Shown here piece after piece: positions 23,117 to 56,754 of a stretch of 64,000 nucleotides of DNA; positions within the stretch are counted from its first letter, which is position 1; every line of letters begins with the position of its first letter. Made by a program: the position numbers and the translations under genes. Under the pieces are notes generated by a model. It saw only the letters and a list, made by a program, of their open reading frames with translations, was not told the origin of the DNA and ran no database searches. Origin of the DNA: Actinomyces procaprae (GTDB lineage Bacteria; Actinomycetota; Actinomycetes; Actinomycetales; Actinomycetaceae); assembly GCF_004798665.1 (NCBI RefSeq), contig NZ_CP039292.1, positions 1,984,001-2,048,000 on the forward strand, in the 5' to 3' direction.

Positions 23117-23736
23117 GGCTCTTCGCGTTTGAGGGTGTGGTGGTGTGCAGGTGGGGGCCTGGTGGCGGTCGTTGTGGACGTCCCGGCGGGGCCGCTCTGC
23201 CAGGTACGGGTAGGGCGGGCGTGATTGATCGTCGTGAGCCTGGGCGGGTCACTGCAGGTCCCGACGGATACGCCGATTCCGGGCGGGTCCCTCCGGGATG
23301 CGGCGGATGGGATGGGAGGACTCGGATGCTCGCCTGGCGGTTCGTACCTTCTGGTCAACGATTCGTACTATCCGGCGACGGTACGTACCCCTGGGTGCCG
23401 AACCGTCGCAGGAAGGTACGAACCGTCGGCGCTATGTGCCGAACCGTCAACCAAAGGTACGAACCGTCAAGCGAGCACCCGAACCGTCGTGTTGATCCGC
23501 GTGTGCGCCTGGCGATCATCCGGTGTCCTGATGACGCCCCGTACGGGGCGGTGGCCGCCTCCTCTTGCGACCAGCACGCCATCGGCTGGTGGCTCCTGGC
23601 GCCTGGCCGGGTCGGCGTGCTGCGGCCGTAAAACGGGCCCGCGCCCGGCGACTCGGGTGTCAACGACGACGCCCGACCCCGCACCCCAGCAGATAACTCA
23701 CACCCCCACCAACCACACCCACGAACACGAACAGCC
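23117..23736. mobile_element. MITE-like non-autonomous element upstream of ppgK (copy A)
   Basis: A 620-bp segment with no convincing gene is bounded by inverted ends: GGCTCTTCGCGTTTGAGGGT followed by GTGG on the left and, on the other strand from 23736, GGCTGTTCGTGTTCGTGGGT followed by GTGG. Imperfect 8-bp direct repeats flank it (GGTTTGCG 23109-23116, GCTTTGCG 23737-23744). GGCTCTTC ends and 8-bp duplications are characteristic of the ISL3 family, so it may be mobilised by an ISL3-type transposase elsewhere. Inside, 23331-23490, is an array of GGTTCGTACC / GGTACGAACCGTC motifs shared with the copy at 55.6 kb. Confidence 0.75.
23331..23490. repeat. Inverting array of about 20-bp repeats inside MITE copy A
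   Basis: Motifs related to GGCGGTTCGTACCTTC occur first in one orientation (23336 onward). A core GGCGACGGTACGTACCCCT follows, and then the same motif repeats in the opposite orientation as GGTACGAACCGTC or TGCCGAACCGTC, about five times with 18-24-bp spacing. The core matches that of the array at 55.8-56.0 kb almost base for base. The array could fold as a large cruciform or RNA hairpin; its function is unknown. Confidence 0.7.
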
Positions 23737-33378: not shown

Positions 33379-36322
<2,944 letters not shown>

Positions 36323-53662: not shown

Positions 53663-54070
53663 AGCGCGGCAAGTCCGGCCAGGTGACATGCGGCCGCAGC
53701 GACAGCACCGACCCCTGGACGGTTGCCCCGCCCGCGCGCGGGTGGCTCCGGTGGCCTGACTGGCGGGATGACTGTCGGTGCGACCGCCGGACCCGCGCGC
53801 GGGTGTGCCCGGCGTGAGCGCGCCGCACGCTCAGTTGTGGCGCAGTTTTAGGGATTTGGCGGAATCATGCGGAAAACACCTCAGCCGGTGAACGCGGCAT
53901 TCGGCTCCCACGTGCGCCGACCCCCGCGGCGCACGTGGGAGCCGAACGACCTCCTTCAACCCAAAACCAAGAACGTTGAAATACCAGGCAAAACTCGCTG
54001 TCCGGTCAGAGCGGCAAGATGACTGAGCGTGCGCCGCCACGGGAGGCAACCCGCATTGGAATGTCGCGTA
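53663..54070. other. Intergenic region between the second permease and the IS element
   Basis: The 408-bp stretch carries no gene I can support. It holds two copies of a self-complementary CCCGCGCGCGGGT (53731-53743 and 53792-53804) and the long hairpin at 53900-53946. From about 53947 to the IS end the composition becomes less GC-rich. Confidence 0.55.
53900..53946. terminator. Perfect 19-bp hairpin, candidate terminator or repeat
   Basis: TTCGGCTCCCACGTGCGCC (53900-53918) is exactly complementary to GGCGCACGTGGGAGCCGAA (53928-53946) around a 9-nt loop. It lies about 240 bp after the permease stop. It may be a factor-independent terminator without a U tract, or a REP-like intergenic repeat. 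Confidence 0.55.
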
Positions 54071-55247
54071 CCCCGTTGTCTATGAAGAAGTGCAACACCG
54101 TGCCTACTAGCCTGGGTTCTGTGAGGAATCCGTTGGCTTTGGAGAGGAACGGTGCTGCACCGTGTGTAGAGGATACCGGCACTTGAGCGGTGAGGAGCGT
54201 GATGTGATTCAGGCGATGCTCCCCCACTCATTCGCTGCGGCAGATCGCCACCGCGCTGGGCCGCAGCCCGGCGACTATCAGTCGGGAGGTGGCCCGCAAC
54301 TCCTGGCGGCCCTCCCACCTGGCCCAGGCCTACAGGCCCTACCGGCCCGCCAGGTTGAAGACCGACTGGTGGACCGGGCGGGCATATGTGGCCTCCCGCG
54401 CCGAGGCGGCTGCGCGCTCACGCCACCACGGCCGGCGTGCACGCATGAGTCATGACCCCCTGGTCGCCTATGTAACCGAGCGGCTGCGCCGGGGGTGGAG
54501 CCCGCTGGTGATCAGCGGCCGCCTGAGGCTGGACCACCCCGATGATGAGCGGATGCGGGCCTGCCCGGAGACCATCTACGCCTGGATCTACGTCACCCAG
54601 GATCGGGCCGCCGGCCTGTCCGGCTACCTGGCCAGGGCTCACCGGCGCCGCCGCCACACCGGCGGGCGCAGGACGGTTGGCTCCCCGATCCGTCTGCGCG
54701 TGGGTGTCAGCCACCGGCCCAAGACAGCGGATGAGCGCTCCCAGGCGGGTCACTGGGAGGCCGACTCTGTGATCTGCAAGCATGGGGTCATCCACACCCT
54801 GGTGGACCGGGCCACCCGGTTCATGCTCACCGCCCTGCTGCCGGACAAGACCGCCGCCGCCACTTCCGCCGCCCAGACCCGCCTGCTCGATGGCCTGCCC
54901 ACCCATATGCGCAGGACGATCACCTACGACAATGGTAGTGAATTCGCTGCCCACCACACCCTGGTGGAATCCCACGGGGTACTGACCTACTTCGCCGACC
55001 CCTACAGCTCCTGGCAGCGGGGCACCAACGAGAACCGCAACGGCGTGCTTCGCCGCTACCTGCCCAAAGGCACCGACATCACCCACCTGGACCCAACGGA
55101 ACTAGCCGACATAACCACCGAGATCAACAACCGCCCCCTACGGGTCCTGGGCTACCACACACCAGCCGAAGCCCACCAACAAGCCCTGACCCAACATACA
55201 ATCAAAACCACCAACCCCAGGCGTTGCACTTCAACCTAGACAACGGG
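54071..55247 (+). mobile_element. IS30-family insertion sequence
   Basis: The element is bounded by terminal inverted repeats of about 28 bp. The left reads CCCGTTGTCTATGAAGAAGT then GCAACACC; the right, on the other strand, reads CCCGTTGTCTAGGTTGAAGT then GCAACGCC, with four mismatches. A 4-bp direct repeat CGTA (54067-54070 and 55248-55251) is the likely target duplication. Size (about 1.18 kb), the GTTGCACTTC end motif and the DDE transposase inside all fit IS30. It sits directly before the Phd/VapC genes. Confidence 0.82.
54162..55239 (+). pseudogene. IS30 family transposase with an apparent frameshift
   Basis: The frame starting at GTG 54162 gives YRHLSGEERDVIQAMLP, the helix-turn-helix start of IS30 transposases. 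It then leaves the family, while the +1 frame picks up exactly with LRQIATALGRSPATISREVARNSWRPSHLAQAY. The break lies in a run of five C at 54221-54225; four C would restore one frame. The rest is intact with the DDE catalytic core: GHWEADSVIC (D), ITYDNGSEFAAHH (D) and YSSWQRGTNENRNGVLRRYLP (E), ending inside the right inverted repeat. Either the copy is inactive, or the base count in the C run is wrong. Confidence 0.8.
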
Positions 55248-55286
55248 CGTAGACGATCTGCGCTACGCTTGCTACAGAGTGATGTC

Positions 55287-55544
55287 ATGACTACGATTCC
55301 ACACCGCGAGCTACGGAACGACAGCGCCGCAATCCTCCGCCGAGTGGAGGCCGGCGAGAGTTTCGAGATCACCAACAACGGATGTCCCGTGGCCGAGCTT
55401 GTACCTATTACTCACGACCGCCTCGCGCTACTGCGTCGGCAAGGCGCTACGCGTCCAGCGGTCCCCACAGACTTCAACGCCTTAATGCGCGCGCGAGGAC
55501 TCAGCTCAAAAGATGTACTGGAAGATCTGCGCGGCGAGCAATGA
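55287..55544 (+). CDS. Phd/YefM-type antitoxin
   Basis: The 85-residue protein reads MTTIPHRELRNDSAAILRRVEAGESFEITNNGCPVAELVP, the standard Phd/YefM N-terminal dimerisation and DNA-binding domain, followed by a shorter toxin-binding tail. It would neutralise the PIN toxin and repress their common promoter. The stop overlaps the vapC ATG by 4 bp (ATGA). The start at 55287 is the first family-like Met; an upstream in-frame Met lies inside the IS element. Its partner toxin gene is disrupted, so this antitoxin is now an orphan at this locus. Confidence 0.9.
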   Translation: MTTIPHRELRNDSAAILRRVEAGESFEITNNGCPVAELVPITHDRLALLRRQGATRPAVPTDFNALMRARGLSSKDVLEDLRGEQ

Positions 55545-55814
55545 CCATTTGCTACCCAGATACCTCCGCGGCGCTCAAGCTTCTTATTGAGAAAGCCGAG
55601 TCAGATCCTTTAGCGGCTCTTCCGGTTTGAGGGTGTGGTGGGTGGTGTTGGCTTGCGCTGATTCGCCGGGGCCGTTGGGGTCATCCGGGCGCTGGACCGG
55701 GGCTGCCGCCATTGACGACGCACGGCGGCAAGCTCGGTGCCCTACCCGCCAGGCCCCGGGCGCAGGCGTGAGCGCTCGGGGTGCGGACCTGGCGTGTTCG
55801 CCCGCGCGCCCCGG

Positions 55815-56010
55815 GTGACGGTTCGGCACTTGGCGTGACGGTTCGGCACTTGGCGTGACGGTTCGGCACTTCGCGTGACGGTTCGGCACTTGGCACCAAC
55901 GATTCGGCACTTCCGGCGACGCTACGTACCCCTACCGTACGAACCGTCGCACGACGGTACGAATCGCCGACCAGAACATACGAACCCTCAGGCGAAGGTA
56001 CGAACCGTCG
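55815..56010. repeat. Inverting array of about 20-bp repeats inside copy B1
   Basis: Four nearly perfect tandem copies of GTGACGGTTCGGCACTTGGC occupy 55815-55894, then a variant unit (ACCAACGATTCGGCACTTCC) follows. Next comes the core GGCGACGCTACGTACCCCT, and then the motif continues in reverse as GTACGAACCGTCGC, GGTACGAATCGCCG, ATACGAACCCTC and GGTACGAACCGTCGC. The same organisation and core occur in copy A at 23331-23490. Confidence 0.8.
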
Positions 56011-56049
56011 CGTCAACACACAAACCCCAGCCCAACACACCCACAAACC

Positions 56050-56469
56050 GGCTCTTCGTGTTTGTGGGTGTGGTGGTTCGGGCTCGCGGGTGGTCGTGTT
56101 CGGCGCGGACGGGTCCGACTTGGCGGTGGCGTTCGGGACTGGGAGGTCGTGCTCGGGCGTCCGGGCGAGGTCTGAGTGGGGCCTGCGCCGACATTCTGGG
56201 GCCGACGAGGACATGTGGCCGGCAAGGGGGTGTCCCCGGGGCGGCGTCACGGGCGTCGAGCGAGTGCGGTCAAGACCAGCGCGCGGTCATCGGGTACGCC
56301 CCTTCGGCGTCTGCCACGCCAGTTAGACCTCCACTGAAAGGCCCAGAACCCTCCAGCAGACACCAAACCCGAGTAGTAAACCCCGAACCGGCGCAACAGA
56401 CCACGCCAGCGCAAACCACGCCGACGAACCACCTCCCGGCTCCACCCACACCCCCAAACACGAAGCGCC
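56050..56469. mobile_element. MITE-like element nested in copy B1 (copy B2)
   Basis: The 420-bp segment begins GGCTCTTCGTGTTTGTGGGT and its other end, read on the - strand, is GGCGCTTCGTGTTTGGGGGT. The flanking octamers CACAAACC (56042-56049) and CTCAAACC (56470-56477) differ by one base. They correspond to a stretch of the right inverted repeat of B1 (GGTTTGAG in reverse). Removing B2 and one octamer restores a well-matched B1 end. B2 lacks the repeat array and any clear gene. Confidence 0.75.
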
Positions 56470-56683
56470 CTCAAACCGGAAGCGCCCCTTTAGCCACCTG
56501 GCTGACCGAGCAGACCGCAAACGGCTTGTCATGATTGATTCCCAGGGCACCGTCGGGACTCGCCTTGAATTGCGCGCCCACTTGGAGCGCCTTATACGCG
56601 ATCTCAGACGATCCAAGTAGAGGAACACGGCCCAACTGGACAAACGCGGTCAGCGCGTGTGATGACCGGCTTGACTCACAAGT

Positions 56684-56732
56684 ACGCAGGTCGGCCCGCA
56701 GCAACTCATGGCTGCTGCGGGCCGACCTGCGT
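56684..56732 (-). terminator. Stem-loop terminator after ino1
   Basis: A perfect 20-bp stem (ACGCAGGTCGGCCCGCAGCA with TGCTGCGGGCCGACCTGCGT) with a 9-nt loop lies about 22 bp beyond the ino1 stop. It is the strongest hairpin of this part of the window and should end ino1 transcription. Confidence 0.85.
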
Positions 56733-56754
56733 GTGTGCATGGCGGAACGAGCGA

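What the first reader, a model, noticed from the sequence alone, without database searches (positions are those of the whole stretch)
55541..56534. vapC toxin gene broken by nested ISL3-like MITEs
Within a PIN-toxin gene lies an element with GGC(T/G)CTTCCGGTTTGAGG ends and a perfect 8-bp duplication CCTTTAGC. Removing it and one octamer rejoins the PIN reading frame (SDPLATWLTEQTANG). A second element with GGC(T/G)CTTCGTGTTTG ends sits inside the right inverted repeat of the first, with octamers differing by one base. Two successive insertions can therefore be read in order. The elements encode no transposase. GGCTCTTC ends and 8-bp duplications point to ISL3-family mobilisation.
Basis: partly seen in the sequence, partly recalled or inferred. 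Interest (0 to 1): 0.8.

Follow-up and report, generated by a model that had tools for sequence, protein, structure and literature searches.

The report
Nested ISL3-type MITEs inside decayed vapC
Two small parasitic DNA elements, one lodged in the end of the other, sit in an already crippled bacterial toxin-antitoxin gene; they belong to a large family moved by a known type of transposase, and many of that family have an odd interior of repeats spaced two turns of the DNA helix apart.

Summary
Element 1 (55615-56486) has ISL3-type ends and a perfect octamer duplication, CCTTTAGC. Element 2 (56050-56469) sits 9 bp inside element 1's right end; its octamers differ at one base. Four relatives carry vapC uninterrupted here, with one octamer: natural empty sites. 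The genome has at least 16 element-1 matches. In 80 fetched stretches plus the window, 18 end pairs have exact 8-bp duplications (shuffle mean 0.5). Three ISL3 copies have matching ends, all broken; a sister species has intact ones.

Two corrections. vapC was not broken by MITEs alone: 282 bp, most of the PIN domain, are also deleted just downstream. The insertion order is likely, not proven, because element 1 keeps 17 bp of its right end outside element 2.

Beyond the finding: 22 of 26 MITE-sized elements have 20-bp-phased interiors, of three unit types. Element 1's is a centre-inverted array (steps 20/21, centre 22 in 77 of 77 arrays), confined to 7 of 49 genomes of the genus, the seven richest in these ends. 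ISL3-borne MITEs and MITEs with tandem repeats are both published; a centre-inverted, helically phased interior seems a new variant.

The parts
54071..55248 (+). IS30-type element (transposase ORF 54289-55239) just upstream of the antitoxin gene; a 99.6% copy also splits one of the ISL3 copies
   Evidence: BLAST of window 54000-55300 to L103, 1178 bp at 99.6%; Pfam rve core 2.8e-9. The name IS30 is recalled, not from a call
55287..55544 (+). Phd/YefM-type antitoxin gene, open frame
   Evidence: Pfam PhdYeFM_antitox 1e-8, TIGR01552 1.9e-8
55541..55614 (+). 5' piece of the vapC (PIN) gene, ending in the left octamer CCTTTAGC 55607-55614
   Evidence: 92% to L118/L119, uninterrupted here; PIN domain of the L118 gene 1.5e-11
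55615..56486 (+). Element 1 (ISL3-type MITE, 444 bp of its own) with element 2 and its extra octamer inside
   Evidence: ends, exact octamers, at least 15 further matches in the genome
55817..56009 (+). Centre-inverted phased array in element 1: six + units starting at 55817, 55837, 55857, 55877, 55898, 55918 and four inverted units whose first bases lie at 55948, 55968, 55989, 56009 (core GACGGTTCG)
56050..56469 (+). Element 2 (ISL3-type MITE, 420 bp), nested 9 bp from the right tip of element 1
   Evidence: ends, octamers with 1 mismatch; related longer elements of 733-1266 bp
56042..56049 (+). Left octamer of element 2, CACAAACC
56470..56486 (+). Right octamer of element 2 (CTCAAACC) plus the last 9 bp of element 1: 17 bp of element-1 right end
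56296..56415 (+). Worn array of another unit type in element 2 (read by eye; below the lag-20 threshold)
   Evidence: inspection; element 2 is one of the 4 of 26 below threshold
56487..56534 (+). Right octamer CCTTTAGC (56487-56494) and short 3' piece of vapC ending in a stop; a 282-bp deletion lies at about 56530/56531
   Evidence: comparison with L118, L119
23117..23736 (+). Another ISL3-type MITE in the window, with array 23336-23488 and octamers GGTTTGCG / GCTTTGCG

Best explanation
Both elements are non-autonomous ISL3-family MITEs. An ISL3-family DDE transposase recognised their roughly 24-bp ends (GGCKCTTCSKGTTTGNGGGTGTGG) and inserted them into 8-bp targets that are mostly two G/C, four A/T, two G/C, duplicating the octamer. 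Element 1 entered vapC in this lineage after it split from G024 and G034. Element 2 most likely entered the right end of element 1 afterwards, at the A/T-rich AAAC of that end. vapC was in addition disabled by a separate 282-bp deletion. Shown: ends, octamers, empty sites, copies, ISL3 transposase genes between matching ends. Inferred: transposition in trans, the order of events, and that this assembly now lacks a working partner.
For: Exact 8-bp octamers 18 against 0.5 expected. AT% by octamer position over 29 pairs (up to one mismatch): 24, 17, 86, 93, 97, 76, 17, 17. Four natural empty sites. 16 element-1 matches over 370 bp in the genome, the window's included (40 of 146 candidates scored, so a lower bound). 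ISL3 copies 1930325-1931774, 2799297-2800618 and 3062150-3064775 with GGCTCTTCCGGTTTAAGG at one or both ends, the last bounded by exact octamer GCTATTTC. Sister genome G024 has ten equally scoring ISL3 genes in 466-aa open frames; the one examined is a 1448-bp element with ends GGCTCTTCGCGTTTAGGGG / GGCTCTTCGTGTTTGAGGG and exact octamer CGTTTACC.
Against: No whole ISL3 gene was found in the own genome: of 15 matches nine are listed, all partial, and the six unlisted score lower; the three copies with ends are frame-broken or split. Present-day mobility is thus unproven. Of the seven array-bearing genomes, G010 and G034 have no ISL3 match at E 0.001 and G028 only weak ones. Element 2's octamers differ at one base, and CACAAACC fits the A/T-centred target less well. 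Movement itself was not observed.
Confidence: 0.94

Rival explanations
1. The element-1::element-2 composite formed elsewhere and inserted into vapC as one unit.
For: Element 1 keeps 17 bp of right end outside element 2; its outer octamers are identical while element 2's differ by one base, as if older. Elsewhere one exact octamer pair (2798697-2800618, CGTTTACC) is bounded by the outer ends of two different elements, a 561-bp MITE and an ISL3 copy, so ends of neighbours may be used together.
Against: No second composite among the 13 own copies listed (13 of 161 candidates scored), where only the window copy stops at the element-2 insertion point; the right end is only 17 of about 24 bp.
Confidence: 0.15
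2. The MITEs are mobilised by a transposase of another family that happens to share the end sequence.
For: No whole ISL3 gene seen in the own genome; no ISL3 match in G010 and G034.
Against: ISL3 genes lie between the same ends with 8-bp duplications here and in G024; published Microcystis MITEs with GGCTCTTCG ends and 8-nt duplications were linked to ISL3 on the same grounds (PMC11448079, section 21 read).
Confidence: 0.03
3. The phased interiors are ordinary minisatellites made by slippage, without function, copied along with the MITEs.
For: Copies differ by a whole 41-bp step at one locus; tandem minisatellites inside MITEs are known, P. gingivalis BrickBuilt (PMC4596501, abstract and passages).
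Against: Slippage alone does not predict inversion about a centre with spacing 22 in 77 of 77 arrays, the same 20-bp step in three unit types, or arrays found where the ends are worn. The 77 were picked with centre spacing 20-24 allowed, so the test of the centre is a limited one.
Confidence: 0.4
4. The arrays act as RNA (a long transcribed hairpin).
For: The four arrays folded each fold better than all 200 shuffles, z -4.7 to -9.1.
Against: Mirror positions do not co-vary: of 31 variable positions in 28 non-redundant arrays, one has as few as 20 of 500 shuffles reaching the observed match, the next 54; period 20.5 fits B-DNA rather than A-form RNA (recalled helix values).
Confidence: 0.15

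Closest known systems
Microcystis 187-nt MITE linked to ISL3-family transposases (PMC11448079; passages and section 21 read)
   Same: no transposase; ends matching GGCTCTTCG; 8-nt target duplications; ISL3 elements with matching ends in the same genome; some insertions into genes
   Different: 187 nt with identical copies, stem-loop but no phased array reported in the section read; here several diverged families of 420-1266 bp, nested, most with phased interiors
BrickBuilt and 464/PgRS MITEs of Porphyromonas gingivalis (PMC4596501; abstract, outline and passages)
   Same: MITEs with tandem repeats inside (23 nt and 41 nt), similar ends on unrelated interiors
   Different: repeats described as direct; no centre inversion and no ISL3 link in the passages read
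ISL3-family insertion sequences
   Same: ends, 8-bp duplication; DDE transposase gene in the larger copies
   Different: the window elements carry no ISL3 transposase match

Membership tests
ISL3-borne MITE | short element without transposase | tested here: met
   the ISL3 profile finds nothing inside the window elements; the mechanical ORFs in them were not scanned against Pfam
ISL3-borne MITE | terminal inverted repeats matching an ISL3 insertion sequence of the genome | tested here: met
   GGCTCTTCCGGTTTGAGG against GGCTCTTCCGGTTTAAGG around ISL3 genes
ISL3-borne MITE | 8-bp target duplication | tested here: met
   18 exact pairs; natural empty sites for element 1; element 2 has one mismatch
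ISL3-borne MITE | multiple copies with defined ends | tested here: met
   16 element-1 matches over 370 bp; element-2 relatives
ISL3-borne MITE | movement in trans by ISL3 transposase | not testable with these tools
   needs a transposition assay
type II toxin-antitoxin locus (Phd/VapC) | intact toxin gene | tested here: not met
   insertion plus 282-bp deletion
REP/BIME-type repeats | associated REP (RAYT) transposase | not tested
   considered only because of the inverted repeats

The most novel reading that the evidence does not exclude
In one set of genomes of this genus (7 of 49) ISL3-borne MITEs have evolved a functional interior: oriented 9-bp sites repeated every two helical turns and inverted about a fixed centre. 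A host or element protein would bind them on one face of the DNA and loop or wrap the element, helping the ends to pair or insulating neighbouring genes. The different unit types would then be parallel versions of the same device.
Probability: 0.3. Interest if true: 0.68.

Novelty: new variant of a known kind. Interest (0 to 1): 0.42.

Why it matters
As a nested MITE insertion it is a clean but ordinary case that places one of the lesions of vapC in one lineage. What deserves notice is the interior. Helically phased, centre-inverted site arrays carried to many places by a transposase, and still there where the ends are worn, would be a mobile source of protein-binding arrays, and they come with natural occupied and empty sites in sister species against which an effect on neighbouring genes could be measured.

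Tried and rejected
Rfam search of the region: only sub-threshold microRNA matches at 56670-56738, taken as chance. RNA hairpin as the conserved feature: strong folding but no co-variation. Standalone arrays as an element of their own: 53 of 77 have an inward-facing ISL3-type end within about 500 bp of the array centre (up to 6 of 24 mismatches; 9 of 77 in the control orientation), 31 of 77 on both sides (0 in the control), so most look like MITE interiors; the other 24 have no recognisable end. A search for terminal repeats with octamers around 15 standalone array loci gave one doubtful hit. Strand polarity of the 23-bp repeats: an apparent run of + hits is a listing effect, since fetched loci hold both strands; rejected. 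Insertion into other elements' ends as a general rule: the test flagged 4 of the 28 pairs printed; I read only element 2 as a clear case, the other three lying beside a neighbouring end.

Papers: (listings); PMC4133298 and PMC1590026 (passages) added nothing decisive; PMC10969869 (passages only).

Full report
Observation. Element 1 spans 55615-56486 between identical octamers CCTTTAGC; element 2 spans 56050-56469, nine bases from the right tip of element 1, between CACAAACC and CTCAAACC. The window is G000:C1:1984001-2048000 of an unnamed 3.6-Mb genome; its genus has 49 held genomes.

Natural empty sites. The left flank (55250-55614) and right flank (from 56487), searched apart, meet with an overlap of exactly 8 bp in four relatives: L118 (G034), L119 (G024), L120 (G027) and L121 (G028) (sequences). 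The insertion therefore most likely happened in the G000 lineage. Of the 49 genomes, 19 (the own one included) matched the left flank; the right flank was compared with the 19 loci fetched from the 18 other genomes. It matched five of them, and in these four both flanks meet.

vapC is doubly broken. Against L118 and L119 the window lacks 282 bp at about 56530/56531. The L118 gene is 131 aa with a PIN domain (1.5e-11); the window keeps about 36 codons of it in two pieces. In G041 (L122), the fifth match, a different part of vapC is missing, without a MITE match in the locus. The antitoxin gene is open and matches Phd/YefM families. An IS30-type element sits just upstream.

ISL3 membership. PF01610 matches nine places in the genome. 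Three larger elements carry ISL3 genes with ends of the type GGCTCTTCCGGTTTAAGG: 1930325-1931774, 2799297-2800618 and 3062150-3064775. All three are broken: two by frame changes, the third by a 99.6% copy of the window's IS30-type element. Of 15 NF033550 matches in G000 nine are listed, none whole; the six unlisted score lower. G024 has ten equally scoring ISL3 genes in 466-aa open frames; the one copy examined has matching ends and the exact octamer CGTTTACC. Ends and octamers together: 18 exact 8-bp pairs against a shuffle mean of 0.5 (maximum 4 of 1000). Over 29 pairs (up to one mismatch) the octamer is A/T-rich only in its four central positions. The stretches were chosen for their matches and cover about 5% of the genome, so these are not genome totals.

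Families. Element 1 has at least 15 further matches of over 370 bp; six copies with octamers run 465-527 bp, and the window copy lacks about 60 bp near its left end. Element 2 is a short relative of 733-1266-bp elements.

Order of events. The octamer copied from element 1's end leaves 17 bp of that end outside element 2, so a composite jump is not excluded. Elsewhere one exact octamer pair is bounded by the ends of two different neighbouring elements (2798697-2800618), which keeps that option open. Only the window copy stops at the element-2 insertion point among the 13 own copies listed, which favours two steps: element 1 first, then element 2.

The interior. Of 26 octamer-bounded elements under 1300 bp, 22 have a 20-bp self-match count of 20 or more; 200 control slices of the window reach 10 at most at that lag, though 6 of the 200 reach 20 at some other lag. 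The four below threshold are 369346, 1640659, 2304480 and element 2. In most of the 22 the top lag is 20 or its double (40 or 41); in 1302870 it is 19. Left out of that count were four larger elements (two of them ISL3 copies without a bounding pair of their own) and the outer element 34578-35653. The 22 fall into three unit types: GACGNTTCG (10 elements), AACGCNACTT (8) and a third in the relatives of element 2 (4). Members of a type are relatives, and the second and third types share partial similarity (72-76% over some 100-170 bp), so these are not 22 independent cases.

The first type in detail. In the 133 loci given to the script (81 own, 52 from relatives) 77 arrays with at least five units were found, 32 own and 45 from relatives; all have + units to the left and inverted units to the right, with first-base spacing 22 across the centre although 20-24 was allowed. 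In the stricter scan (50 clusters), 207 of 214 steps between units of one orientation are 20, 21 or a multiple (40, 41, 61) where a unit was missed. Unit pairs occur 25 to 100 times in each of 7 genomes of the genus and not in the other 42 (reversed control 0). In the wider family 4 of 164 other genomes have one hit each, as many as the control. The exact 15-base end is found in 13 of 49 genomes, 8 to 66 times in the same seven and at most 6 times elsewhere.

Arrays and MITEs. 53 of 77 arrays have an inward-facing end within about 500 bp of the centre (control 9), 31 on both sides (control 0); 24 have none recognisable. At three loci compared across species, arrays are shared by three to five species at the same site and missing in others: the locus of L073 lacks it in G041 and G028, that of L115 in G027; at the locus of L085 G034 keeps half an array, and the alignment of G027 there is poor. 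End remnants are readable at L085 and L115. Arrays thus seem to outlast the ends; I did not measure whether they evolve more slowly than neighbouring DNA.

DNA or RNA. The four arrays folded fold strongly, but mirror positions do not co-vary (28 non-redundant of 65 arrays with two or more units a side; 31 positions, one at 20 of 500 shuffles; positions 11 and 12 of unit 3 match less often than shuffled). The core GACGGTTCG is largely held in every unit while the rest varies. I read this as oriented protein sites on one face of the helix: inference, no protein known.

Known or new. ISL3-borne MITEs with GGCTCTTC ends and 8-nt duplications are in print for Microcystis (PMC11448079, section 21 read), and MITEs with internal 23- and 41-nt tandem repeats for P. 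gingivalis (PMC4596501, abstract and passages). My searches for Actinomyces with ISL3 or MITE terms found nothing on point in their listings, and those for phased or tandem MITE interiors showed no centre-inverted case in the rows listed; most subscription papers are not held. The nested pair is therefore a new member of a known kind; the phased interior looks like a new variant.

Noticed in passing
own genome, e.g. L108:1085-1177, L067:322-460, L093:784-919: A second dispersed tandem repeat, 22-23-bp direct units CTACCGANCTC..., 300 unit-pair hits in G000, 7 to 89 in each of the other six array-bearing genomes and 1 to 4 in three further genomes of the genus.
   Followed up: partly
L068:714-2369 (G000 977913-979522): Two near-identical arrays flank a single gene (a DUF559-like product by recall, no profile run); G010 shows two similar unit runs about 1.4 kb apart.
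   Followed up: no
window 54071-55248 and L103:1541-2715: The same IS30-type element sits upstream of the antitoxin gene and inside an ISL3 copy about 1 Mb away, 99.6% identical, which suggests recent movement.
   Followed up: partly
G000 2798697-2800618 (in L099): A 561-bp MITE and an ISL3 copy side by side share one outer octamer pair, CGTTTACC, exact; the ISL3 copy examined in G024 has the same octamer.
   Followed up: no
loci of L073, L085, L115: By eye, arrays at these loci lie between genes that converge; not counted over all arrays.
   Followed up: no
L122 (G041): vapC of a sister species lacks a different stretch, so this toxin gene has decayed more than once.
   Followed up: no
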